From NCBI RefSeq assembly GCF_003323745.1, contig NZ_QOIL01000005.1:372001-436000 (forward strand): a stretch of DNA of 64,000 nucleotides, given 5' to 3'. This DNA comes from Sphaerisporangium album. Its GTDB lineage: Bacteria; Actinomycetota; Actinomycetes; Streptosporangiales; Streptosporangiaceae. Every line of letters begins with the position of its first letter. The stretch's first letter is position 1. The position numbers and the translations under genes were made by a program. Below are positions 27,590-37,372 of the stretch, in pieces. A model generated the notes under the pieces. The model was not told where the DNA came from and made no database searches. It saw only the letters and a list, made by a program, of their open reading frames with translations.

Positions 27590-28789
27590 CTACTGCGCGG
27601 CCAGGGCGACCGTCGGCGACAGGCGGGCGGCACGCATGGCCGGGTAGATGCCGGCGATGGTACCGATGACGAGCGTGGCCGCGCTCGCCCCGCCGAACGC
27701 CCACGAGGGCACGACGGGCGGCCAGTCACGCGAGAGCGCGTACGCGGTGGTGGCCAGCGCGCCGAGCACCGAACCGACGAGACCGCCCAGCGCCGACAGG
27801 AGCAGCGATTCCGCCAGGAACTGGATACGCACCTGTCCACGGGTGGCGCCCAGGGAACGGCGCAGCCCGATCTCCCTGCGCCGCTCCAGCACGGAGATCA
27901 CCATCGTGTTCGCCACCCCGACGCCGCCCACCAGCAGCGCGACCGCGCCGAGGCCGAGCAGCAGGTTCGTGAACGCGCTAGCGGCGGCGGCCCTGGCGGC
28001 CAGCGCGTCGGACGGCCTGCTCACCTCCACCTCGTTCGGGTTCTCCGGGTTGACCGTGCGCGGCAGCACCGCCCGTACGGCCTCCACGGCTTCCTCCCTC
28101 GACCGCTCGTAGATCGTCGTGGGATGCCCGCCGAAGCCGAGGAGCTTCTCGGCGACCGGGAACCCCACGAGGGCCGAGCGTTCGATCTCGGGGGCCAGCG
28201 GCATCGGCTCCAGGATGCCGATGACGGTGAACCACCGGCCGCCCATCCACACCCGCACGCCGACCCTGGTGATGCCGAGCCGGGTGGCGGCCTCCGAGCC
28301 GAGGACGACGGCGGCCTGCCGTTCGGTGGCGGCGTTCAGCCAGGTTCCCTTCGCCACACGGCCCTCCAGAGTGGTCAGCAGCTCGGTGGTCGCGGCCTGG
28401 ACGGAGATGCCGCCGGTCACGGCCTCGGGGATCCGGTCGGTGCGCCGGACGCCGGTGTCGGCGGTGCCGGTGGCCGAGGCCGTGTGAATCGGGCCGATGC
28501 GTTTCACCATGTCGAGCGCGATGGCTGGAAGCTCGGCCTGCTCGCCGAACAGGGTTCGGCCCGGGGACACGGTCAGCAGGTTGGTGCCGAGCCGGTCGAG
28601 CTGGCGCAACAGCTGCTCGCGCGAGGAGGACGAGATGCCGATCACCGCGACCATGGTGGCGATCCCGATGGCGATGCCGAGCGCGGAAAGGATCACCCGG
28701 GTCGGCCGGGCCCGCAGGCCGGCCGCGCCCACCCGCAGCACGTCGGAGGGCCCGAGACGGGAGGGCCTCAGCCGTTGGTCGCGGGTCAT
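27590..28789 (-). CDS. MacB-like ABC transporter permease
   Basis: 399-aa inner-membrane permease of the MacB/FtsX type. The first transmembrane helix (about 30-50, RVILSALGIAIGIATMVAVI) precedes a periplasmic-type core domain (about 60-270), then three helices close together at the C-terminus: LLLGLGAVALLVGGVGVANT, the cytoplasmic loop RRREIGLRRSLGATRGQVRI, and LLLSALGGLVGSVLGALATT. These are the classic FtsX-domain features. The start ATG at 28789 overlaps the ATPase stop (ATGA). Together with the ATPase and adaptor it should form a mechanotransmission-type exporter for a peptide, lipid or antibiotic; the cargo is unknown. Confidence 0.9.
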   Translation of the reverse strand: MTRDQRLRPSRLGPSDVLRVGAAGLRARPTRVILSALGIAIGIATMVAVIGISSSSREQLLRQLDRLGTNLLTVSPGRTLFGEQAELPAIALDMVKRIGPIHTASATGTADTGVRRTDRIPEAVTGGISVQAATTELLTTLEGRVAKGTWLNAATERQAAVVLGSEAATRLGITRVGVRVWMGGRWFTVIGILEPMPLAPEIERSALVGFPVAEKLLGFGGHPTTIYERSREEAVEAVRAVLPRTVNPENPNEVEVSRPSDALAARAAAASAFTNLLLGLGAVALLVGGVGVANTMVISVLERRREIGLRRSLGATRGQVRIQFLAESLLLSALGGLVGSVLGALATTAYALSRDWPPVVPSWAFGGASAATLVIGTIAGIYPAMRAARLSPTVALAAQ

Positions 28790-29583
28790 GCCCTGCCCCC
28801 TTTCGTCGTGATCTCGGTACGCCCGTCGGGCCGGGCCTCCTCGGTGATCTCCGCCGGCGGGCCGCTCCCGGTGCCCTTCGTGATCTCCGCCGGCCGGCCG
28901 GCGCCGTCGCCGTGGTCGGCCACGATCCGGCCGTCGCGGACCCTGACCTGGCGCGGGCACCAGTCGGCGATCTCCACGTCATGGGTGATGATCGCGATGG
29001 TCGTGCCCGAGGCGTGCAGGTCACGCAGCACCCCCAGCACCTCGGCGCCCGCGCCCGAGTCCAGGTTTCCCGTGGGCTCGTCGGCGAGCAGCAGCGGCGG
29101 GTCGCCGGCCACCGCGCGGGCCACCGCGACCCGCTGCTGCTCGCCGCCCGACAGCTGGTGGGGCCTGTGCGCCAGCCGGTGACCGAGGCCGACCCGCTCC
29201 AGCGCCGCCGCGGCCCGCTCGCGCCTCTCCCGCCGGGGGATGCCCGTGTACAGGAGGCCCTCGGCGACGTTGTCCAGCGCGCTCACGCCGGGGGCCAGGT
29301 GGAACTGCTGGAAGACGAACCCCAGGGTGCGGCCCCGCAGCGCCGACAGCTCGCGGTCGGACAGCTCGGCGATGTCGTATCCGTCGATGCGCACCGTGCC
29401 GCTGGTGGGCCGGTCCAAGGTGCCGATCATGTGCAGCATGGTGGACTTGCCGGAACCGGACGGGCCGACGATGGCCAGCAGCTCCCCGCCGGCCACCGTC
29501 AGGTCCACACCGCGAAGGGCATGCACCTGACCGGCGTAGACCTTCGTCACCGCGTGGAGCGCCACGACGTACGGCGCGTTCAT
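28786..29583 (-). CDS. MacB-like ABC transporter ATPase
   Basis: 265-aa ABC ATPase. Walker A GPSGSGKST (40-48), Q-loop FVFQQFHLAPGVSALDN, signature LSGGEQQRVAVARA, Walker B LLLADEPTGNLDSG and H-loop IITHDVEIA are all intact, with the LolD/MacB-type N-terminus VTKVYAGQVHALRGVDL. About 35 extra residues at the C-terminus repeat a PAEIT-type element (PAEITKGTGSGPPAEITEEA) and look disordered. ATGA overlaps join it to the adaptor gene upstream and the permease gene downstream, so the three are one translation unit. Confidence 0.93.
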   Translation of the reverse strand: MNAPYVVALHAVTKVYAGQVHALRGVDLTVAGGELLAIVGPSGSGKSTMLHMIGTLDRPTSGTVRIDGYDIAELSDRELSALRGRTLGFVFQQFHLAPGVSALDNVAEGLLYTGIPRRERRERAAAALERVGLGHRLAHRPHQLSGGEQQRVAVARAVAGDPPLLLADEPTGNLDSGAGAEVLGVLRDLHASGTTIAIITHDVEIADWCPRQVRVRDGRIVADHGDGAGRPAEITKGTGSGPPAEITEEARPDGRTEITTKGGRA

Positions 29584-30644
29584 TTCGCGGGCACCCCGAC
29601 CTTCATGCCCTCCGACAGCCCGGAGCCGCTGATCTCCACCAGGCCACCGCCGAACGCGCCGGTCTCCACCGTCACGATGCGCGTGGTGCTACCCTCGACC
29701 ACCTCGACGCCGAACCCGCCCTCGCGCAGGGCGAGCAGCGCCTCCACCGGCACGGCGAGCACGTTCTCGTGCCGCTCGCTCTCCATCTCCACGTCCACGG
29801 GGGCCTGGTCCAGCTTCGACCTGGGCGTCTTGTTCAGGGTGATGTCGACGTCGATGGTGGTGCGGCCGTCCTGCCCCTGGTCGGAGCCGCTGCTCTTGGC
29901 CACCGCGCCCACCGAGCTGATCCGCCCTTTGACACGCTCGCCGCCGGGCATCTCGACGGTCACCTCGGCGCCCTCGCGGGCCATCGCCTGGTCGTCGGTG
30001 TCGAGATCCACGTGCACCAGACGCCGGACGCCGCTGACCGTGAGGACCTGCCCGCCGGGGCCGACCTTGTCGCCGACCTCGACCTTGGCCTCGGTGACCC
30101 GGACCACCCCGGGCAGGAACACCACCTGCGCGCCGTTCACCCGGCCGGTCCGCGGCAGCCCCCGGTCGTCCTGCCACGCCTTGACGGCCAGGGACGTGGC
30201 GTAGCTGAAGTGGTCGTCTACGGTCAGGTACTCGCCGTATCCGAGCGCCTTGAGGTTGCGCTCGAGCTGCTCCACGTCCGGCCCGTCCGAGACGCCCGCG
30301 CCCAGCTCCCGGTAGAGCGGCAGCTTGCCGTACATGAGGCAGAGCGGCCTGCGGTCGACCTTGAGCAGCGGGCGGCCGCGGCGGACGACCGCGCCCTCGG
30401 CGGCCACCCAGGTCACCGTGCCGGAGGCGTCGGTGCCGAGACGCCGCTCACCCGAGTAGGTGAGCGAGCCGTCGACGGTCTTGGTGTCCACCAGGTCCTG
30501 CCGGGTGATCGCCGCGGTGGCGGGGACGGCGGCCTTGGAGGGCGCCGCCGCGCCTGTGCCGCCGTCGCCGAGCGCGACCAGCGCGGTCCACGCGGCGGCG
30601 ACGGTGAGCAGGCCCACGCCGGCGAGGGTGAGGCCCTTCCTCAT
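29580..30644 (-). CDS. HlyD/MacA-like adaptor with a peptidoglycan-binding-like insert
   Basis: 354 aa from the ATG at 30644, which overlaps the lipoprotein stop. An N-terminal membrane anchor (about 5-27) is followed by a lipoyl-like barrel half (GTVTWVAAEGAVVRRGRPLL), then a peptidoglycan-binding-like helical domain at about 122-165 (DVEQLERNLKALGYGEYLTV, FSYATSLAVKAWQDDRGLP) in the place of the usual coiled coil, then the second half (VEVGDKVGPGGQVLTVSGVR) and barrel domains. This arrangement is common in Gram-positive adaptors, which have no TolC to reach and may instead contact the wall. It works with the MacB-like ATPase and permease. Confidence 0.85.
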   Translation of the reverse strand: MRKGLTLAGVGLLTVAAAWTALVALGDGGTGAAAPSKAAVPATAAITRQDLVDTKTVDGSLTYSGERRLGTDASGTVTWVAAEGAVVRRGRPLLKVDRRPLCLMYGKLPLYRELGAGVSDGPDVEQLERNLKALGYGEYLTVDDHFSYATSLAVKAWQDDRGLPRTGRVNGAQVVFLPGVVRVTEAKVEVGDKVGPGGQVLTVSGVRRLVHVDLDTDDQAMAREGAEVTVEMPGGERVKGRISSVGAVAKSSGSDQGQDGRTTIDVDITLNKTPRSKLDQAPVDVEMESERHENVLAVPVEALLALREGGFGVEVVEGSTTRIVTVETGAFGGGLVEISGSGLSEGMKVGVPAK

Positions 30645-31159
30645 GAAGGGCCCCCGCCCGGTTCGAACTCCTTGCACGCCGCGTGGGCGGCCTTGACCTT
30701 CTCCTCCGGTGTGCCCGGCGGGATGTTGATCATGACCCTGCCGTCAGGGCCGGGGTCCTCCATGGGGATGCCGTGCTCGCGCATGCACTGGGCGAACTTG
30801 AGCATCCGGTCGAGCTGCTTCTGGTCGGGCTTCCCCAGCTTGTCGCCGATCGCGGCGTCCATGAAGTGCTTGCACGCCTGCTGCGCCTTGGCGATCTTGT
30901 CCTCCTCGCCCTTGCGCCCCTCGATCCTGATCCCGCCGTTGGGTTCCGGGTCCTTCATGGCGACGCCGTGCTCGCGCATGCACTGGGCGAACTTGAGCTG
31001 GGCCTCCCTCGGGTCGGTGGGAGCCGAGGCCGAGGCCGAGGCGGTGGGTGCGGCCGTACCGCTGCTCACGCTCGCCACACCGTCGTCCCCCGCGGGCGCG
31101 CCGCACGCGGCCAGCGCCAGCACCAGTGGGGCGGCGGCCAGCATCGGTCGTAGGTTCAT
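30641..31159 (-). CDS. Lipoprotein with a duplicated QCMREHG motif
   Basis: 172 aa. Signal peptide and lipobox LALAAC (Cys19). The mature part opens with a Ser/Ala/Thr linker and contains two copies of the same unit: KFAQCMREHGVAMKDPEPNG and, about 65 residues later, KFAQCMREHGIPMEDPGPDG, each followed by a conserved Ile/Val strand and ending in a CKHF or CKEF segment. Four Cys could form two disulfides. The ATG at 31159 has GAGGAG 8 nt upstream. I know this motif from actinobacterial lipoproteins next to MacAB-like exporters but no function is established; sensing or presenting the exported substrate is a guess. First gene of the export operon. Confidence 0.8.
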   Translation of the reverse strand: MNLRPMLAAAPLVLALAACGAPAGDDGVASVSSGTAAPTASASASAPTDPREAQLKFAQCMREHGVAMKDPEPNGGIRIEGRKGEEDKIAKAQQACKHFMDAAIGDKLGKPDQKQLDRMLKFAQCMREHGIPMEDPGPDGRVMINIPPGTPEEKVKAAHAACKEFEPGGGPS

Positions 31160-31233
31160 GACTGTCGCTCCTCGGCGCCGCGGGTCGTTCGCCCGGGGCG
31201 CGAAGCACACTTCAGCGGTTCCGGTGCTAAACG

Positions 31234-31259
31234 TGGATAAGCCGCGATGGTCTTATCCA
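31234..31259. promoter_or_regulatory. Perfect 8-bp inverted repeat in a divergent promoter region
   Basis: TGGATAAG (31234-31241) and CTTATCCA (31252-31259) with a 10-nt spacer lie between the export operon and the two-component system. One helical turn separates the arm centres by about 18 bp, suiting a dimeric regulator such as the adjacent OmpR-type protein. Confidence 0.5.
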
Positions 31260-31310
31260 GGGTTAACACCTGATCCGGCACTCTCGACGCAGAACGGGAG
31301 GGGGCCGGGG

Positions 31311-31964
31311 ATGCGAGTGCTCGTCGTAGAGGACGAGGAGGAGCTGGCCGACGTCATCGCGCGGGGGCTACGGCTGCACGCGATCGCCGTCGACGTCGCC
31401 TACGACGGCCAGGAGGCGCTGGAGATGTCCGCGTACGTCCACTATGACGTCGTCGTCCTGGACCGGGACCTGCCCGAGGTGCACGGGGACGACGTCTGCC
31501 GCGAGCTGAGGGCGGGGGGCGAGACCGGACGGGTCCTCATGCTGACGGCGGCGGGGCAGGTCCGGGACCGGGTCGGCGGGCTGTCCCTGGGCGCGGACGA
31601 CTATCTGACCAAACCGTTCGCGTTCGCCGAGCTCGTGGCCCGGATCCGGGCGCTTTCCCGCCGCTCGCCGCGGGTGACGCGGTCCACGCTGGAGCGGGCC
31701 GGGATCAAGCTTGATCCCGGACGCCGCACGGTCGCCCGCGACGGGCGGGAGATCGCGCTGAACCGCAAGGAGTTCGACGTGCTCGCCGAGCTGATGCGCG
31801 CCGGCGGGCGCCTGGTGACCTCGGCGGAGCTGCGCAGGAGCGTGTGGGATGAGCACGCCGTCGCGGACACCGGCGTGCTCCGAGTCACCATCACCTCACT
31901 TCGCAAGAAGCTGGGCGGCCCGGCCGTGATCGAGAACGTTCCCGGCAAGGGGTACCGGCTTTGA
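31311..31964 (+). CDS. OmpR-family response regulator
   Basis: 217 aa. Receiver domain with acidic pair Glu7-Asp8 (VLVVEDEEELADV), phosphoacceptor Asp51 (VVVLDRDLP), Thr in MLTAAG and Lys in DYLTKPF. The C-terminal winged helix (about 130-217) has LNRKEFDVLAELMRAGGRLV, then LRVTITSLRKKLGG and the final IENVPGKGYRL. Divergent from the lipoprotein/MacAB-like operon, which it probably controls through the inverted repeat at 31234-31259. Its TGA overlaps the TTG of the histidine kinase gene. Confidence 0.93.
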   Translation: MRVLVVEDEEELADVIARGLRLHAIAVDVAYDGQEALEMSAYVHYDVVVLDRDLPEVHGDDVCRELRAGGETGRVLMLTAAGQVRDRVGGLSLGADDYLTKPFAFAELVARIRALSRRSPRVTRSTLERAGIKLDPGRRTVARDGREIALNRKEFDVLAELMRAGGRLVTSAELRRSVWDEHAVADTGVLRVTITSLRKKLGGPAVIENVPGKGYRL

Positions 31965-33142
31965 GGCTTCGCGGCCCGGCGCTCCTCCCGGCGGCCCGCC
32001 TCTGGTGGGACGGGCGGAGGCTGCGCCTGAGGCTCACGTTGCTGTACGGCGTGCTGTTCTTCGTGGCCGGGTCCGTTCTGCTCTGGCTCACCTACCTGAT
32101 GACGGCGCGGGCGCTGGACCAGCAGTTCAACATCAAGTTCCTCCGTAAGGACGGCGCCGCGCCGCTCGGCGGCCTCCCCGTCCCCACTGGTCCGATCGTG
32201 GACGCCGTGCAGCTGGACGTCGACCATAGGACCAGCAGCGTGCTGAGCGAGATGGTGCGCTCGTCCCTGACCGTCATGATCTTGATCGGGATCATCGCGC
32301 TGCTGCTGGGATACCTGGTGGCCGACCGGGCGCTGCGGCCTCTCGACCGGGTCACCGACACGGCGCAACGGCTGTCGGAGAGCACCCTGCACGAACGCAT
32401 CGCGCTGGGCGGCCCGCAGGACGAGGTGAAGCGGCTGGCCGACACCTTCGACATGATGCTCGACCGGCTGAACCGGGCCTTCGACGTCCAGCGGCGGTTC
32501 ATCGCCAACGCCGCTCACGAGCTGCGCACGCCCCTGGCCATCAACCGCACGGTGCTGGAGGTGTCGCTGGAGGAGCCGGACGCCTCCCACGACCTGAAGG
32601 CGATGGCCAGGGCACTGCTCGGCACCAGCGCCCGCTACGAGCGGCTCATCGAGGGGCTGCTGCTGCTGGCGCAGTCGGAACAAGAGCTCACCTACCGCAG
32701 GACGGTGGACGTGCGGCAGGTCGTGCGCATCGTGCTGGAGCAGCTCGACCTGCAGCCGCGCAAGCGGCACGTCGCCGTCCACCACGACCTGAGCCCCGCG
32801 TTAGCCCAGGGCGACCCGCTCTTCCTGGAGCGCTGCGTGTTCAACCTGCTGGAGAACGCGATCAAGTACAACGTACGGGACGGCGAGGTGTGGGTGAGGC
32901 TGCGCCAGGACGACGGCGTCACGCTCACCGTGGAGAACACCGGCAGGCCGGTCCCTCCGTACGAGGTGGACGAGCTGTTCGAGCCGTTCAGGAGGCAGCA
33001 GGGTGAGCGAATCGGCTCCTCGCGCGGCGCGGGCCTCGGGCTGTCGATCGTGGCCGCCATCGTCAAGGCGCACGGCGGCTCGATCGAGGCCCGCGCCCGC
33101 CTCCAGGGAGGCCTGGAGGTCACCGTACGCCTACCGGCGTGA
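31961..33142 (+). CDS. Sensor histidine kinase of the MacAB-linked two-component system
   Basis: 393 aa, TTG start forming a TTGA overlap with the response regulator. Two transmembrane helices (about 25-47 and 103-121) flank a short extracytoplasmic loop of about 55 residues; then a HAMP region (RALRPLDRVTDTAQRL), HisKA with phosphoacceptor His186 (FIANAAHELRTPLAINRT), and HATPase motifs NLLENAIKYN and GLGLSIVAAIVKAHGG. The small sensor loop suggests detection at the membrane, for instance of a membrane-active compound, which the adjacent exporter would remove. Confidence 0.93.
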   Translation: MRLRGPALLPAARLWWDGRRLRLRLTLLYGVLFFVAGSVLLWLTYLMTARALDQQFNIKFLRKDGAAPLGGLPVPTGPIVDAVQLDVDHRTSSVLSEMVRSSLTVMILIGIIALLLGYLVADRALRPLDRVTDTAQRLSESTLHERIALGGPQDEVKRLADTFDMMLDRLNRAFDVQRRFIANAAHELRTPLAINRTVLEVSLEEPDASHDLKAMARALLGTSARYERLIEGLLLLAQSEQELTYRRTVDVRQVVRIVLEQLDLQPRKRHVAVHHDLSPALAQGDPLFLERCVFNLLENAIKYNVRDGEVWVRLRQDDGVTLTVENTGRPVPPYEVDELFEPFRRQQGERIGSSRGAGLGLSIVAAIVKAHGGSIEARARLQGGLEVTVRLPA

Positions 33143-33406: not shown

Positions 33407-35071
33407 TCAGCCTGTGTCTATATCTGCTTCGCCTACGAGACTCGCGTCGCTCGATAGTCCGAAACTTGCCATGAAGTCCCGTTCGCGTTCGGCAAGCTCG
33501 GTCCTTCGTGCCTCGATGAAGCCCTCATCGTCGCCGGCCGCCAGCAGGCCCATTGCGCGAGCCGGGATCGCGTGGCTCTCGAGCACGTCGCTCCGAACGT
33601 CTTCCGGGAGATTCAGAAGCGCGTTCTTGACCGACACACGAGGCGCCGTCGGCATGATCAGCCGGTTGGCGGGGCTGGATGCGGCCGCCACTCCCGGCCT
33701 GGTGATCACATGCCGATATGCAGAGGTGGCACCTCGGGCCAGCAGGTCCGCAGGCGAAATTCCCTCGCCGTGCGGAGACAGGCGCTCTGGCAACTCCTGA
33801 AGTTCCCAGATGATGAACGCGCGGACGCGGGCGCTGCGCAAGTCGAACCGGTTGGGGAAGGGGCGGGGGCGTTCATCGGAGATAGACAGCTCGCCGTGCC
33901 CGCGCGCGAAAGCCCGCATCTCGGCCAGCGACTGCCTGATCTGGGTGGTGTTGGCCCCTGCGAAGTGGCCCGACCACGACGTCACCCAGAACCATCTGAT
34001 CAAAACCTGTATCTGTTGTGGGGTCGGTTTCGGGCGGTCATGGAAGAAGGTCGTCAGCAACATCAGTTGCGCGTCATAGGGGATTAGTCGCGCGAGCGGC
34101 ACCCCTACCACGTCGCGGAGGAAGTTCACGGCACGGGTCAAGGCCTCTTCGGTCGCGTCGACCGCCTTTTGGACGTTGTCCTTGACCCGCCTCGCGAGAA
34201 CGTCCCACCTGGCCTCCTGAACGTTCTCCTCGCCGCTCACCGCGAGGACGGACCGGAAGACGGCATCAGGGGAAACCTCGCCGAAGCCGGTGTCCGCGAT
34301 CAGCTCGATCATCTCGTCGAGGCGGTCCGCCAGGCTCTGTTGTCCACTGGTGTGGTAGGTCAGCGCGGAGACCATCTGCGCGGGACGCATCGGCTGGCCG
34401 GTGCTGTTGACCCGGGAGAAGACCTCCACGGCGTCTTCCAGGGAACCTCCCACCAAACGCACCACGGCGAGTTTGTACGACTTGATTCGCTGGGCGACGA
34501 GTTCCGCCTCACCGGTGAGCTGGTCGACATCCATGTCATCGCCCGCGCGCTTGGCGAGCTCTCGCGCGTAAGCAAGGAAGTCGATCGTGCGGAGTACCGA
34601 CCGCAGAGGCAGATAGTTGGCGGGAGGCGCCTCGGGCCGCTTCCAATGACGGTAACGATTGACGCCGTCGCCGGCTTCGCCGAGAATGCGGTACGGCCAC
34701 CACATCCAGTCGCTCTGCGCGGTGGACCTCCGGGCGTCGGCCGGCCTGCGCAGCGTGGCGAAGAGTGCTGACAGCCGTTGGTGACCATCCAGGACGTATG
34801 CCACCGATCGTCCCTCGCGCGGAGGCGGCACAGGTAGATCACCGATGCGATCGAGACTGGCGAGCGGTTCCGACGTCTCCCAGAACAGCAGGCTCCCGAT
34901 GGGGTAGCCGCGCTCGATGCTGTCGAACAGGTCGAGGATCTGCTCAGGACGCCAGACGAACGGCCGCTGGAACTTGGGAATACGGAGCTCGCCGTCGGCA
35001 AGGGGAGCCAGGACCTGCTCCATGAGCATGATCTCGGGCTTGACGTCGATGTCATAATCTTCAGCGGTCAT
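33407..35071 (-). CDS. DUF262 (GmrSD-like, ParB-fold) protein of a defence operon
   Basis: 554 aa from the ATG at 35071 (a TTG codon precedes it). The DUF262 motifs are clear: RIPKFQRPFVWRPEQILDLF at about residues 30-49 and YVLDGHQRLSALFATL with DGHQR at 95-99, the ParB/Srx-type nucleotide or DNA-processing site found in GmrSD and SspE-type proteins. FSRVNSTGQPMRPAQMVSAL is also typical. The C-terminal half is helical and shows no HNH motif I can identify. It is the last gene of an operon with a TOPRIM-like nuclease (11-nt gap) and an AAA ATPase. DUF262 proteins in such settings restrict foreign DNA. Codon use is less GC-biased than the flanks, which suggests acquisition. Confidence 0.85.
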   Translation of the reverse strand: MTAEDYDIDVKPEIMLMEQVLAPLADGELRIPKFQRPFVWRPEQILDLFDSIERGYPIGSLLFWETSEPLASLDRIGDLPVPPPREGRSVAYVLDGHQRLSALFATLRRPADARRSTAQSDWMWWPYRILGEAGDGVNRYRHWKRPEAPPANYLPLRSVLRTIDFLAYARELAKRAGDDMDVDQLTGEAELVAQRIKSYKLAVVRLVGGSLEDAVEVFSRVNSTGQPMRPAQMVSALTYHTSGQQSLADRLDEMIELIADTGFGEVSPDAVFRSVLAVSGEENVQEARWDVLARRVKDNVQKAVDATEEALTRAVNFLRDVVGVPLARLIPYDAQLMLLTTFFHDRPKPTPQQIQVLIRWFWVTSWSGHFAGANTTQIRQSLAEMRAFARGHGELSISDERPRPFPNRFDLRSARVRAFIIWELQELPERLSPHGEGISPADLLARGATSAYRHVITRPGVAAASSPANRLIMPTAPRVSVKNALLNLPEDVRSDVLESHAIPARAMGLLAAGDDEGFIEARRTELAERERDFMASFGLSSDASLVGEADIDTG

Positions 35072-35082
35072 CAACCCATCAC

Positions 35083-36033
35083 CTAAACGATCTGCCGCAG
35101 TAGTGTGAGGATACTGCGCAGCTCAGTTGCCGCGTCAGAGCCCAGGTCGCGATCGAAGTCCGCCTCTGTGATCCGATGCGCGGCCACGTCCTGGAAGAGC
35201 TTGATGACGTCTGCACCGAAGCCCTGCTTTAGCCCACTGACGACCTTGTCAGGAAGACCGTCGAACAACGACTTCTGGTTTTCGGGGACCTCGCCGCTCT
35301 TGCCGAACCCGAGCTTCATGTCGAAGTGCCCACGCTGCTCCTTGGTGAGCTTTTTGAAGAACTTCAGTCGTTGAGAGGCTTCGCGGTACGGTTTCTTTGC
35401 CTGGAGCAGCCTGTTGGGAATATAGTTCTCTGCCTCCCGTAGTTCGAGAACATGGACCTTCACTCCGAGACGGCGGAGCTGTTCGATGCGTCTCGAGGAC
35501 TTCACGGGTGCGTCAGGCGTCAGCTTGTCGCTGTCCACCACCAGTGCGACACGTTGGAGTCGCCGGAATCTACGATGCTCCTCCTCGGCACGCCGATACG
35601 TGTCACCGCCACCGCCGCCGTGTTCGATGATCAGCCAATTCCGATCGATGGCGACCAGGAGATCCTCATGCCCGAATATGCGTGCGACTGCCTTGAGAAA
35701 CCCTCCGTCCGAGGCGTTGTTCTCGACGAGGACCACGGCGGGCAGAGATAGGTCTGCGACATGATCTTCCACGTCGTCCGGAAAGATCCTGGCGACGGGG
35801 GGTCCGCCCGGCACGGAGTAGGCGGTGTACTGTACGGAGCTTCGTTCCGCCAGCTCTCTGAATGTTTCCGCAACGCGTGGCCAATGGCGATGCAGATAGG
35901 ATTCGATCTCCGGAACGGCAGCCGGGTTCACCGCCCAGGAATGGCGGCCATCGGCGAAATGGCATATCAGCACGTAAACATGTCGCGCCTGATCGTCTCT
36001 GGCGAACAGAGCGGTGCCGAGCTCAACGCGCAT
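35083..36033 (-). CDS. TOPRIM-like nuclease partner of the AAA ATPase
   Basis: 316 aa I identify only by motif. The central part has the TOPRIM pattern: VVLVENNASDGGFL with Glu104, then RVALVVDSDK with Asp167-x-Asp169, then VHVLELREAENYIP, where the R-E-x-E-N-Y element is shared with OLD-family and DUF4435-type nucleases. The region between Glu104 and the Asp pair is 60 residues, longer than minimal TOPRIM domains. The C-terminus is helical and basic (REASQRLKFFKKLTKEQRGH). It overlaps the ATPase gene by 11 nt, as in split OLD-like, PARIS-like and similar ATPase-plus-nuclease systems. DNA or RNA cleavage on infection is inferred, not shown. Confidence 0.65.
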   Translation of the reverse strand: MRVELGTALFARDDQARHVYVLICHFADGRHSWAVNPAAVPEIESYLHRHWPRVAETFRELAERSSVQYTAYSVPGGPPVARIFPDDVEDHVADLSLPAVVLVENNASDGGFLKAVARIFGHEDLLVAIDRNWLIIEHGGGGGDTYRRAEEEHRRFRRLQRVALVVDSDKLTPDAPVKSSRRIEQLRRLGVKVHVLELREAENYIPNRLLQAKKPYREASQRLKFFKKLTKEQRGHFDMKLGFGKSGEVPENQKSLFDGLPDKVVSGLKQGFGADVIKLFQDVAAHRITEADFDRDLGSDAATELRSILTLLRQIV

Positions 36034-37372
36034 CGGTGTCCTGGCGACCGAGTTGCGCGGCTGCGAGGGCCCGGGTCTCCTCGAAATCCTCCGCGAATAT
36101 TCCTTGTGGCCAGTAGTCGACGTTCCCCAGGTCGTCCACGTTGATTCGTCGCACCGTCGCCGACACGCCGGTGTGCTCTACGAAGTAGAGCGCGATCATG
36201 TCCGGGTCGACTTTACCCTCGGCCACCCGGCGGCGCAGTCGCAACAGGAACGTTTCGCTGTGCGTCTCTATCAGGAAGCGGACCGGTGTCCTCTGCGTCG
36301 CCGTCACGTACAGGTCCGCCAGCGCGGCCTGGCCTGAAGGGTGGAGGTGGAGCTCCGGCTCTTCGACGATCTCGAGAATGGAATGGACGGGCGGGTCGAG
36401 TTCGTCCCGGGCGCGCCGGACCAGGATCGGCAGCACCTGCGCGACTCCCGTGCCGGTGTCGGTCGCCGGAACCCAGAGCCCTGCCGTCGCCTTCGATTTG
36501 AGTCCCACAGAGTAGGCGTCGTACCTGGGCACGACCTCCAACTCCCACCCTGGGATGTGTTCGCCGAGGTACTCGTTGATTTTGGTGATCAGCCGGCCGC
36601 CGCGCCGGACATGGTCGTAGATGAGGATCGGGACGGTGTCCGTTCCTGAGTCGTCATCCTGGCTCGGGAGCCTCGCTGTCAGGCGTCCGACCCGGTTGGG
36701 ACGCGTACGAAAAGGCCCGAGGTGGCGAATTCGATCCAATCCCGCCCTCACCAACCACCCTCTGCCATCCGGAAATGGAGACCGTGTTAGATCATCCGGC
36801 ATGGCTCGAGAACGGTTGGCAGGGAGCAGGCCCTTGAATGCCACCGATGAGACATGAGACAAGAGATCGTTGCCGGTGACCGAGTAGGGGTGTGAATCCT
36901 CCTCGCCCGCCTCATCCTCCGGAATCCACTCAAGGGAAGTCGTGCCCTCCGGCGAGCGGAGAGTCCACCGGCTCACCACCTGGCTATGCCACTCGGCGAC
37001 GTTCTGGATGGTGACGTCAATCCCGATGGTCAGAGGAAAGGTCATGCCATGGCTACCTGCGGAATCGGGATCAAAGCTCTTCCCGATGGCCTGCTCAGGC
37101 ACTTCTACTTCAAGCCCGAAGCTGACACTGCCATGCTCGACCCGATTGTGGATAAGATCGACGAAGTCCGGAGCGTGTTCCCCGAGTTGTTCGAGATCCA
37201 GGGGTAGGCTCGAGTCGGAATCAAAACCCGTGCTCAGCACCAGGGGTGCCCTTACGAGGGCGCTTTTTCCCGAGTTGTTCTTGCCCAGAACCACCGTGAT
37301 GGGGCGCAACTCCAGATTCTGGCGTTTGGAGAAGCATCGGTAGTTTTCAAACGAGAGTCGGACCAGGGGCAT
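36023..37372 (-). CDS. AAA ATPase with DUF3696-type C-terminus
   Basis: 449 aa. RecF/SMC-like N-terminus (VRLSFENYRCFSKRQNLELR) with Walker A GKNNSGKS (30-37), a long middle lid region, Walker B and D-loop as EIVEEPELHLHPSGQAAL (EEPELHLHP at 337-345) and the H-loop IETHSETFLLRLRRRV. The last about 50 residues (SATVRRINVDDLGNVDYWPQ, FAEDFEETRAL) match DUF3696, which caps a class of such ATPases found next to nucleases. It heads the three-gene operon; no ribosome-binding site is visible, and TAAGCT 6 nt before the ATG could be the -10 box of a leaderless transcript. It probably senses or threads DNA and controls the TOPRIM-like partner. Confidence 0.85.
   Translation of the reverse strand: MPLVRLSFENYRCFSKRQNLELRPITVVLGKNNSGKSALVRAPLVLSTGFDSDSSLPLDLEQLGEHAPDFVDLIHNRVEHGSVSFGLEVEVPEQAIGKSFDPDSAGSHGMTFPLTIGIDVTIQNVAEWHSQVVSRWTLRSPEGTTSLEWIPEDEAGEEDSHPYSVTGNDLLSHVSSVAFKGLLPANRSRAMPDDLTRSPFPDGRGWLVRAGLDRIRHLGPFRTRPNRVGRLTARLPSQDDDSGTDTVPILIYDHVRRGGRLITKINEYLGEHIPGWELEVVPRYDAYSVGLKSKATAGLWVPATDTGTGVAQVLPILVRRARDELDPPVHSILEIVEEPELHLHPSGQAALADLYVTATQRTPVRFLIETHSETFLLRLRRRVAEGKVDPDMIALYFVEHTGVSATVRRINVDDLGNVDYWPQGIFAEDFEETRALAAAQLGRQDTDAR

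What the first reader, a model, noticed from the sequence alone, without database searches (positions are those of the whole stretch)
33407..37372. Candidate anti-phage operon: AAA/DUF3696 ATPase, TOPRIM-like nuclease, DUF262 protein
Three tightly linked genes in a visibly lower-GC block (one 60-nt line here has 34 GC versus 43 in an sdhA line) combine an overlapping ATPase-nuclease pair, as in split OLD-like and PARIS-like systems, with a DUF262 protein of the GmrSD type. I recall that some reported three-gene defence systems contain DUF3696 ATPases and DUF262 proteins (Menshen may be one), but I cannot confirm a match; the TOPRIM-like middle gene may make this a new variant.
Basis: partly seen in the sequence, partly recalled or inferred. 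Interest (0 to 1): 0.85.

Follow-up and report, generated by a model that had tools for sequence, protein, structure and literature searches.

The report
Three-gene candidate anti-phage operon (PDC-M55)
An actinobacterium carries a compact three-gene cassette, already listed in a library as a candidate anti-virus system, whose middle gene probably encodes a nucleic-acid-cutting enzyme controlled by an ATP-driven partner and a third protein related to sensors of modified DNA.

Summary
Three co-directional genes (37372-33407, minus strand) encode an OLD-type ATPase with DUF3696 (A), a 316-aa protein without a Pfam family (B) and a DUF262 protein (C). All three match PADLOC's candidate system PDC-M55, full length and in order (A 1e-179, B 7.5e-117, C 2e-270), so the kind is already catalogued; no held paper contains that name. 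B is probably a split TOPRIM nuclease: E104, D109, G140-G141, D167 and D169 are invariant in 23 of 23 B proteins, and a profile of 26 OLD-type TOPRIM domains aligns Glu with Glu and DxD with DxD (E 2.7e-4; reversed control 0.44). Structural support is weak. It is not Menshen as PADLOC defines it: the ATPase is related, the DUF262 partner weakly so, but B does not match NsnC and gene order differs. Defence is supported by location: a P2-prophage hotspot, plasmids, and BREX, OLD or restriction genes close to 3 other copies. Best model: an ATPase-gated TOPRIM effector triggered through a DUF262 sensor; trigger and substrate are unknown.

The parts
36023..37372 (-). Gene A (PDC-M55A): OLD-type ABC/AAA ATPase with C-terminal DUF3696, 449 aa
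   Evidence: Pfam AAA_15 6.5e-19, AAA_21 2.7e-11, DUF3696 2.7e-6; PADLOC PDC-M55A 1e-179, NsnB 4.3e-41; best solved relative of the family profile 6p74, OLD family, 3e-12
37262..37285 (-). Walker A of A (G30-S37, GKNNSGKS)
   Evidence: G30, N32, G35, K36, S37 in 22-24 of 24 A proteins
36338..36364 (-). Walker B / catalytic Glu region of A (E337-P345, EEPELHLHP)
   Evidence: E337, P339, E340, H342, P345 in 23-24 of 24
36023..36033 (-). 11-nt overlap of A stop with B start
   Evidence: same overlap in 16 of 20 family copies (window plus 15)
35083..36033 (-). Gene B (PDC-M55B): predicted split TOPRIM nuclease, 316 aa
   Evidence: PADLOC PDC-M55B 7.5e-117; no Pfam/NCBIfam family over cut-off; residues 94-177 aligned with a profile of 26 OLD-type TOPRIM domains, E 2.7e-4, reversed 0.44; AF2 model pLDDT 75.2, top Foldseek hit = OLD C-terminal region 6njw but E only 0.08
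35722..35724 (-). Codon of E104, predicted TOPRIM catalytic Glu
   Evidence: invariant 23 of 23; aligned with the Glu of VEG in OLD-type TOPRIMs
35707..35709 (-). Codon of D109
   Evidence: invariant 23 of 23
35611..35616 (-). G140-G141, second TOPRIM-like motif
   Evidence: invariant 23 of 23; aligned with GG of OLD-type TOPRIMs
35527..35535 (-). D167-S-D169, predicted TOPRIM DxD metal motif
   Evidence: D167 and D169 invariant 23 of 23; aligned with DxD of OLD-type TOPRIMs
35416..35439 (-). R199-EAENYI-P206 motif after the TOPRIM core
   Evidence: R199, E202, N203, Y204, P206 invariant 23 of 23; N203 is not kept in the additional, more distant L054 protein
33407..35071 (-). Gene C (PDC-M55C): DUF262 (GmrSD_N) protein with a conserved C-terminal half of undetermined fold, 554 aa (555 from TTG at 35074)
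   Evidence: Pfam GmrSD_N 5e-24; PADLOC PDC-M55C 2e-270; best solved relative of the family profile 7p9k, listed as a DUF262 protein (recalled as BrxU), 1.7e-18
34775..34789 (-). DUF262 nucleotide-binding motif of C (D96-GHQ-R100)
   Evidence: D96, G97, Q99, R100 in 24 of 24 and H98 in 23 of 24 C proteins; equivalent of the DGQQR motif described for GmrS (passages)

Best explanation
The locus is a complete copy of PADLOC candidate system PDC-M55, a three-gene anti-phage cassette that moves between genomes. A is an OLD-type ATPase, B a TOPRIM nuclease encoded separately from it (a split OLD arrangement), and C a DUF262 NTPase of the GmrSD kind without a recognisable HNH nuclease half. Proposed mechanism: A binds ATP, dimerises and holds B inactive in a complex. 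C, through its DUF262 NTP-binding fold, senses a phage-derived feature (most likely altered DNA or a phage DNA-binding protein) and changes the state of A. B is then released or activated and cuts nucleic acid with a metal-dependent E/DxD site, stopping the infection, probably by damaging the cell as well. Shown here: gene content, conserved order and overlap, correlated divergence of the three genes, conserved ATPase, TOPRIM-like and DUF262 motifs, and locations on mobile elements and, for a few copies, near defence genes. Inferred: that B cuts nucleic acid, that A gates it, that C senses, and that the outcome is defence. Unknown: trigger and substrate.
For: PADLOC full-length matches for all three genes. 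Same triplet in 20 of 20 family copies with full-length B. Pairwise identities of A, B and C are correlated across 19 family copies (Spearman 0.65-0.72, 0 of 999 permutations reach it; this does not separate joint transfer from shared descent with the hosts). B: E104, D109, GG, DxD and the RxxENYxP residues invariant 23 of 23; match to a 26-sequence OLD-type TOPRIM profile E 2.7e-4 against reversed 0.44, and to a 6-sequence profile E 2.3e-5 against reversed 0.23. A: Walker A, Walker B and H-loop residues kept in 22-24 of 24. C: DGHQR conserved. Locations: a predicted P2-like prophage, between gpA (phrog_91) and portal (phrog_68), the interval that PMC9122126 describes in E. coli P2-like phages as a hotspot holding old, tin and many anti-phage systems (passages); a conjugative plasmid beside an integrase and a mobilizable plasmid close to a recombinase; in L041 54 nt from a BrxHI-BrxD pair with a tRNA-Pro on the other side, in L032 about 0.7 kb from an OLD-type gene, in L036 about 0.5 kb from a type I methylase.
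Against: No experiment exists here. B is not recognised by Pfam or NCBIfam, has no PDB sequence relative with E below 0.05, and its model's best structural match is not significant (E 0.08, TM 0.29/0.39), the following hits being mostly unrelated folds such as DnaB and KaiC. Two of the five AF2 models were poor (pLDDT 50.9 and 42.8). Only 3 of 6 single OLD TOPRIM sequences beat all 400 null ORFs. A set of 9 short PF20469-type proteins matched only at E 0.047 (reversed 0.25), and one DUF4435 protein at 0.21. B's E-to-D spacing is one residue longer than in the OLD sequences that carry that Asp. In the window the ten neighbours tested are ordinary genes. Among 134 flanking ORFs of 19 other copies no defence family is listed for more than 2 (25 of 135 families shown), so a defence island is not the rule. 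No DNA match to the prophage version in E. coli complete genomes. Two copies have lost the C-terminal half of C and one is frame-broken.
Confidence: 0.55

Rival explanations
1. It is a true Menshen system (NsnA-NsnB-NsnC) in a rearranged gene order, not a distinct system.
For: A matches NsnB at 4.3e-41 and C matches NsnA at 8.1e-9; ATPases from 10 of 10 Menshen loci fetched align with A at about 28-34%. PMC10952713 (passages) says that a Menshen component carries an OLD-type TOPRIM domain. Li et al. 2025 (NAR gkaf357), seen only as a title in two reference lists, reports domain polymorphism of Menshen and may include this variant.
Against: B has no match to NsnC by profile (E 0.28, reversed 0.23); none of 9 single NsnC proteins beats the best of 400 null ORFs; PADLOC's NsnC model does not hit this locus in the own genome, only weakly another contig (9.8e-4). 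In 9 of 9 Menshen loci laid out the ATPase is followed by NsnC, with a DUF262 gene before them in the two tested by Pfam. PADLOC lists the two systems separately.
Confidence: 0.25
2. C is the effector (a type IV restriction-like enzyme recognising modified DNA), and A with B only regulate or repair.
For: C's DUF262 half is clearly homologous to GmrSD-type enzymes, which cut modified DNA (passages of PMC10952713).
Against: C has no GmrSD_C/DUF1524 match at E up to 1; its C-terminal half against a GmrSD_C profile gives 0.23, the same as reversed 0.24; the one candidate HNH histidine (H455) is present in 10 of 20 full-length rows. Invariant acidic residues sit in B. The AF2 model of C is too poor to judge its C-terminal fold, so a diverged nuclease there is not excluded.
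Confidence: 0.15
3. The cassette protects mobile elements against each other, or acts as a toxin-antitoxin-like addiction unit, rather than as a phage defence of the host.
For: Found on a conjugative plasmid, a mobilizable plasmid and two predicted viral contigs.
Against: Most copies found here lie in genomes of one actinobacterial family in varied places, a result also of where I searched. The three genes abut with no room for a further gene between them; small genes outside were not looked for.
Confidence: 0.15
4. A housekeeping DNA-repair or respiration-linked operon of this genus (next to the sdh operon).
For: Lies directly downstream of sdhB here, and a decayed copy lies at the same place in another genus (G563).
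Against: No A, B or C match within the 13-kb region around sdhB in 10 of 10 other genus genomes; the B model matches 21 of 297 family genomes, one of them a remnant; GC is below that of the flanks in 21 of 21 loci.
Confidence: 0.03

Closest known systems
PADLOC candidate PDC-M55 (A, B, C)
   Same: All three proteins match full length, in the same order and strand.
   Different: Nothing found; the window copy is a typical member. The PADLOC models carry no description of function.
Menshen (NsnA-NsnB-NsnC) and the probably identical ptuXYZ
   Same: DUF262 protein and DUF3696 OLD-type ATPase, three tightly linked genes. PMC11980606 (passages) describes ptuXYZ as DUF262, PtuA-like ATPase, and PIN-like plus BECR RNase; that ptuXYZ equals Menshen is my inference.
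   Different: Third gene unrelated by the tests run: TOPRIM-like B instead of NsnC; order ATPase-TOPRIM-DUF262 instead of DUF262-ATPase-NsnC.
PARIS (AriA + AriB)
   Same: OLD-type ATPase and TOPRIM nuclease as separate genes; A matches AriA at 2.8e-20; the P2 hotspot also holds such systems (passages).
   Different: B has no DUF4435 match (comparison with one DUF4435 protein E 0.21); a third DUF262 gene is present in every full-length copy.
Gabija GajA / single-chain OLD proteins
   Same: Same ATPase type (6p74, GajA) and TOPRIM motifs.
   Different: ATPase and TOPRIM are separate proteins; no helicase (GajB) match among the ten window neighbours tested.
GmrSD / BrxU / SspE type IV enzymes
   Same: DUF262 half with a D-G-x-Q-R motif.
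   Different: No recognisable DUF1524/HNH half.

Membership tests
PDC-M55 (PADLOC) | All three protein models matched over full length by adjacent genes | tested here: met
   A 1-419 of 421, B 1-315 of 315, C 1-553 of 554 profile positions
PDC-M55 (PADLOC) | Conserved order A-B-C (my own criterion; PADLOC's system rules were not seen) | tested here: met
   20 of 20 family copies incl. window, plus L026, L027, L051 and L054, L055
Menshen | NsnB-type DUF3696 ATPase | tested here: met
   NsnB 4.3e-41, though PDC-M55A scores far better
Menshen | NsnA DUF262 protein | tested here: inconclusive
   NsnA 8.1e-9 over residues 8-241 only
Menshen | NsnC third component | tested here: not met
   no PADLOC NsnC hit for B at E up to 1; profile E 0.28, reversed 0.23; PDLC03879 does not hit this locus
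TOPRIM nuclease (OLD type) | Conserved Glu and DxD of the TOPRIM core | tested here: met
   E104, D167, D169 invariant 23 of 23 and aligned
TOPRIM nuclease (OLD type) | TOPRIM fold in three dimensions | tested here: inconclusive
   AF2 pLDDT 75.2; best hit is OLD C-terminal region 6njw but E 0.08
TOPRIM nuclease (OLD type) | Metal-dependent nucleic acid cleavage | not testable with these tools
   needs purified protein
PARIS | AriB DUF4435 partner (PF14491) | tested here: not met
   no PF14491 match for B; PF14491 not found in the own genome
GmrSD type IV restriction | DUF262 with D-G-x-Q-R motif | tested here: met
GmrSD type IV restriction | DUF1524/HNH nuclease half | tested here: not met
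   no Pfam GmrSD_C match; hhalign 0.23 vs reversed 0.24; candidate His in 10 of 20; fold itself undetermined
Anti-phage defence system | Protection against phage | not testable with these tools
   only location evidence

The most novel reading that the evidence does not exclude
PDC-M55 and Menshen/ptuXYZ are two outcomes of one modular defence chassis: a DUF262 sensor plus a DUF3696 OLD-type ATPase, to which different effectors are docked, a TOPRIM nuclease here and a PIN-like/BECR RNase there. If so, the ATPase-DUF262 pair is a general signal relay that can switch on unrelated killing enzymes.
Probability: 0.35. Interest if true: 0.65.

Novelty: new member of a known kind. Interest (0 to 1): 0.45.

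Why it matters
In what I could search, PDC-M55 appears only as a computed candidate in a model library. This work gives its unnamed middle protein a probable activity and testable residues, and separates the system from PADLOC's Menshen by its third gene. It also shows related cassettes in a P2-like prophage hotspot and on an enterobacterial plasmid, so that it could be tested directly in E. coli K-12. If the chassis idea is right, it would explain how one sensor-ATPase pair serves different nucleases.

Tried and rejected
Menshen membership: not met for lack of NsnC. Active GmrSD-type HNH in C: not supported; the AF2 model of C was too poor (pLDDT 54.9), so I did not search with it. The scan of genome contigs with B gave one locus. 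Scans of viral contigs with window C and with the B profile found no relatives. The C profile found three loci, of which L054 and L055 carry A-B-C relatives and L056 a DUF262-HNH protein without A or B found beside it. Scans with the L055 and L054 B proteins found only themselves. E. coli genomes (DNA of the prophage operon) and phage records (its B protein) had no match. PDB sequence search with the B profile gave only chance-level hits. The promoter and terminator scan was uninformative.

Correction made on checking: the profile comparisons were run by mistake with a global-alignment switch. I repeated them in local mode and cite those values; the conclusions are the same (6-sequence OLD profile 1.9e-6 global, 2.3e-5 local; NsnC 0.42 global, 0.28 local). 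One search printed only hits above 55% identity, so the absence of A, B and C near sdhB was rechecked without that filter (no hit at E 1e-3 in 10 of 10 regions).

Rows dropped before counts: L001 and L032, and L028 and L034, give the same tblastn values and are taken as the same genomes, counted once. L029 and L030 hold only a DUF262 relative by tblastn and were left out of the family alignments. Of 13 genomes with NsnC I fetched 10 and used 9 in the NsnC profile; L082 was left out because its match has an internal stop, and three partial matches were not fetched. Of 19 PF20469 loci, I used 6 long and 9 short proteins; 4 were unused. One search used 20 of the 23 loci plus those 6. The null is 400 of 650 mechanical ORFs from the flanks, cut to 350 aa, some of them not real genes. 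Of 148 flanking ORFs chosen by a script, 134 were scanned: the 8 of L050 and 6 others were dropped to stay under the residue limit, and the window's own flanks were tested apart.
Full report
What is there. The window holds three co-directional, tightly packed minus-strand genes: A 36023-37372, B 35083-36033, C 33407-35074 (perhaps from the ATG at 35071). A and B overlap by 11 nt. The block has 62.5% GC against 71.1% in the flanks. On one side lie sdhB and sdhA (Fer2_3; FAD_binding_2 with Succ_DH_flav_C) and a gene in the place of sdhC that had no Pfam match; on the other a histidine kinase and response regulator.

Identification. PADLOC's candidate system PDC-M55 matches all three proteins over full length and in order: A 1e-179, B 7.5e-117, C 2e-270. 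Pfam gives AAA_15, AAA_21 and DUF3696 for A and GmrSD_N (DUF262) for C, and nothing over cut-off for B; NCBIfam gives nothing over cut-off for any of the three. No held paper contains the string PDC-M55. Searches for PADLOC candidates, and for DUF262 with OLD or TOPRIM words, gave capped listings in which I saw none that I could tie to it (20 of 58 listed); I read passages only of the papers named below and of PMC12409362, which describes other DUF262 systems.

Distribution. The B model hits 1 place in the own genome, 4 of 396 genomes of a phylum sample including the own one, two of them weak partial matches, and 21 of 297 of a family sample including the own one. In the 20 family genomes with full-length B (window plus 19), A and C are adjacent in the same order in all 20: 17 have three full-length genes, 2 have a C of only 239-256 aa, and 1 is frame-broken. 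The 21st (G563) is a remnant. The 11-nt A/B overlap occurs in 16 of 20. Pairwise identities of A, B and C are correlated across 19 family copies (Spearman A-B 0.71, B-C 0.65, A-C 0.72; 0 of 999 permutations each), as expected if the genes travel or descend together. GC of the block is below that of its flanks in 21 of 21 loci, though in L042 by only 0.1 point. Flanking genes are shared by few pairs of copies: 8 pairs have any shared flank protein at the thresholds used.

Mobility and defence context. A Leclercia conjugative plasmid carries the triplet beside a tyrosine integrase, and a Paracoccus mobilizable plasmid carries it close to a recombinase. In a predicted prophage (L055, host not known) it lies between the gpA-type replication protein (phrog_91, 9.4e-280) and the portal protein (phrog_68, 8.4e-164). 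PMC9122126 (passages) describes this very interval in E. coli P2-like phages as a hotspot that holds old, tin and many anti-phage systems. L054, another predicted viral contig, holds the triplet too. Among family copies, L041 has a BrxHI gene (stop 54 nt before the start of A) and BrxD on the same strand, and a tRNA-Pro on the other side; L032 has an OLD-type gene about 0.7 kb away, with a 195-aa ORF between, and L036 a type I methylase-specificity protein about 0.5 kb away. These 3 were traced by scanning 10 large flanking proteins. A scan of 134 flanking ORFs of 19 copies matched 135 PADLOC families at E up to 1e-10, of which 25 were shown, each with 1 or 2 members; some (DrmB, mad6, PD-T4-6) I did not trace to a locus. 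The most frequent Pfam families there are metabolic. In the window itself there is no defence island.

The sdhB site. In 10 of 10 other genomes of the genus, sdhB is present and no A, B or C match is found within the 13-kb region around it. One (G592) shares the other flank of the window but has other genes in between (read from the ORFs, not tested by Pfam). Another genus member (G426) carries the cassette some 615 kb from its sdhB. In a different genus (G563) a decayed copy lies directly downstream of sdhB. The window copy is thus a gain or a rare survival at a recurring place.

B as a TOPRIM protein. In 23 B proteins with identity to the window protein down to about a quarter, E104, D109, F112, G140, G141, R161, D167, D169, P173, R199, E202, N203, Y204, P206, K240, G271 and G273 are invariant; in the still more distant L054 protein N203 is changed while E104, D109, GG, D167 and D169 are kept. 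A profile of 25 B proteins against 26 OLD-type TOPRIM domains aligns residues 94-177 with E 2.7e-4 (reversed control 0.44), with Glu on Glu, GG on GG and DxD on DxD; A, C and NsnC profiles against the same TOPRIM set gave 0.022, 0.14 and 0.21. A smaller set of 6 gave E 2.3e-5 against 0.23 reversed. Results that weigh less or against: of 6 single OLD sequences only 3 beat all 400 null ORFs; 9 short PF20469 proteins gave 0.047 against 0.25 reversed and one DUF4435 protein 0.21. The AF2 model (4 sequences, pLDDT 75.2, pTM 0.70; two of five models poor) has the OLD C-terminal region 6njw as top Foldseek hit among 350,542 chains, but at E 0.08 and TM 0.29/0.39, with unrelated folds close behind. 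I call the TOPRIM assignment probable, about 0.85.

A and C. A has conserved Walker A, Walker B and H-loop residues, and its family profile is closest among solved structures to OLD protein 6p74 (3e-12) and to GajA. C carries the DUF262 signatures FQRPFVW and DGHQR, and its family profile hits 7p9k at 1.7e-18. Homology to a DUF262-HNH protein (L056) extends to about residue 402 (E 3.8e-22). The last 150 residues show no DUF1524 match, and the one candidate histidine is kept in 10 of 20 rows. The fold there is undetermined.

Menshen. Loci from 9 genomes show the ATPase followed by NsnC, with a DUF262 gene before them in the two tested by Pfam. Their ATPases resemble A (10 of 10 fetched loci), but NsnC does not resemble B. 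PMC11980606 (passages) describes ptuXYZ: DUF262, PtuA-like ATPase, and a PIN-like plus BECR RNase. I infer that this is the same as Menshen, from gene order and from the look of the NsnC sequences printed. PMC10952713 (passages) instead links Menshen to an OLD-type TOPRIM family; the two statements differ, and the dedicated Menshen paper is not held, so this point stays open.

Mechanism. By analogy with PARIS, where an OLD-type ATPase activates a TOPRIM nuclease on sensing a phage protein (passages of PMC12839542), A most likely holds and releases B, and C most likely supplies the sensing step through NTP-driven switching, as described for BrxU and SspE (passages of PMC10952713). None of these steps is shown here.

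Verdict. A real, well-formed copy of an already catalogued but, as far as I could search, uncharacterised candidate system. 

Noticed in passing
L050 9300-11000 (G563, other genus): A decayed copy of the operon directly downstream of sdhB: A is internally deleted and runs into the end of B, C is truncated. Same genomic place as in the window.
   Followed up: partly
L047, L049: Copies whose C protein is only 239-256 aa, the DUF262 half alone, while A and B are full length; the C-terminal half may be dispensable or newly lost.
   Followed up: partly
L041 7286-15148: tRNA-Pro, the M55 operon, BrxHI and BrxD in a row: a compact defence island.
   Followed up: partly
plasmid NZ_MH909329.1, hit H25: A second Leclercia plasmid carries the operon, with an IS1-type transposase annotated inside the stretch that matches B.
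   Followed up: no
L029 6967-9560: Klebsiella plasmid with a DUF262 protein next to a 338-aa protein with an N-terminal hydrophobic stretch, a different two-gene arrangement.
   Followed up: no
L056 7923-10232: Protein joining a DUF262 domain and an HNH-like motif to a C-terminal part that I recall as AlbA/Schlafen-like, on a predicted viral contig.
   Followed up: no
window 28786-33142: ABC transporter, peptidoglycan-binding-domain adaptor, small gene without Pfam match and two-component system beside the operon; conserved in G592 (L149) without the cassette.
   Followed up: partly
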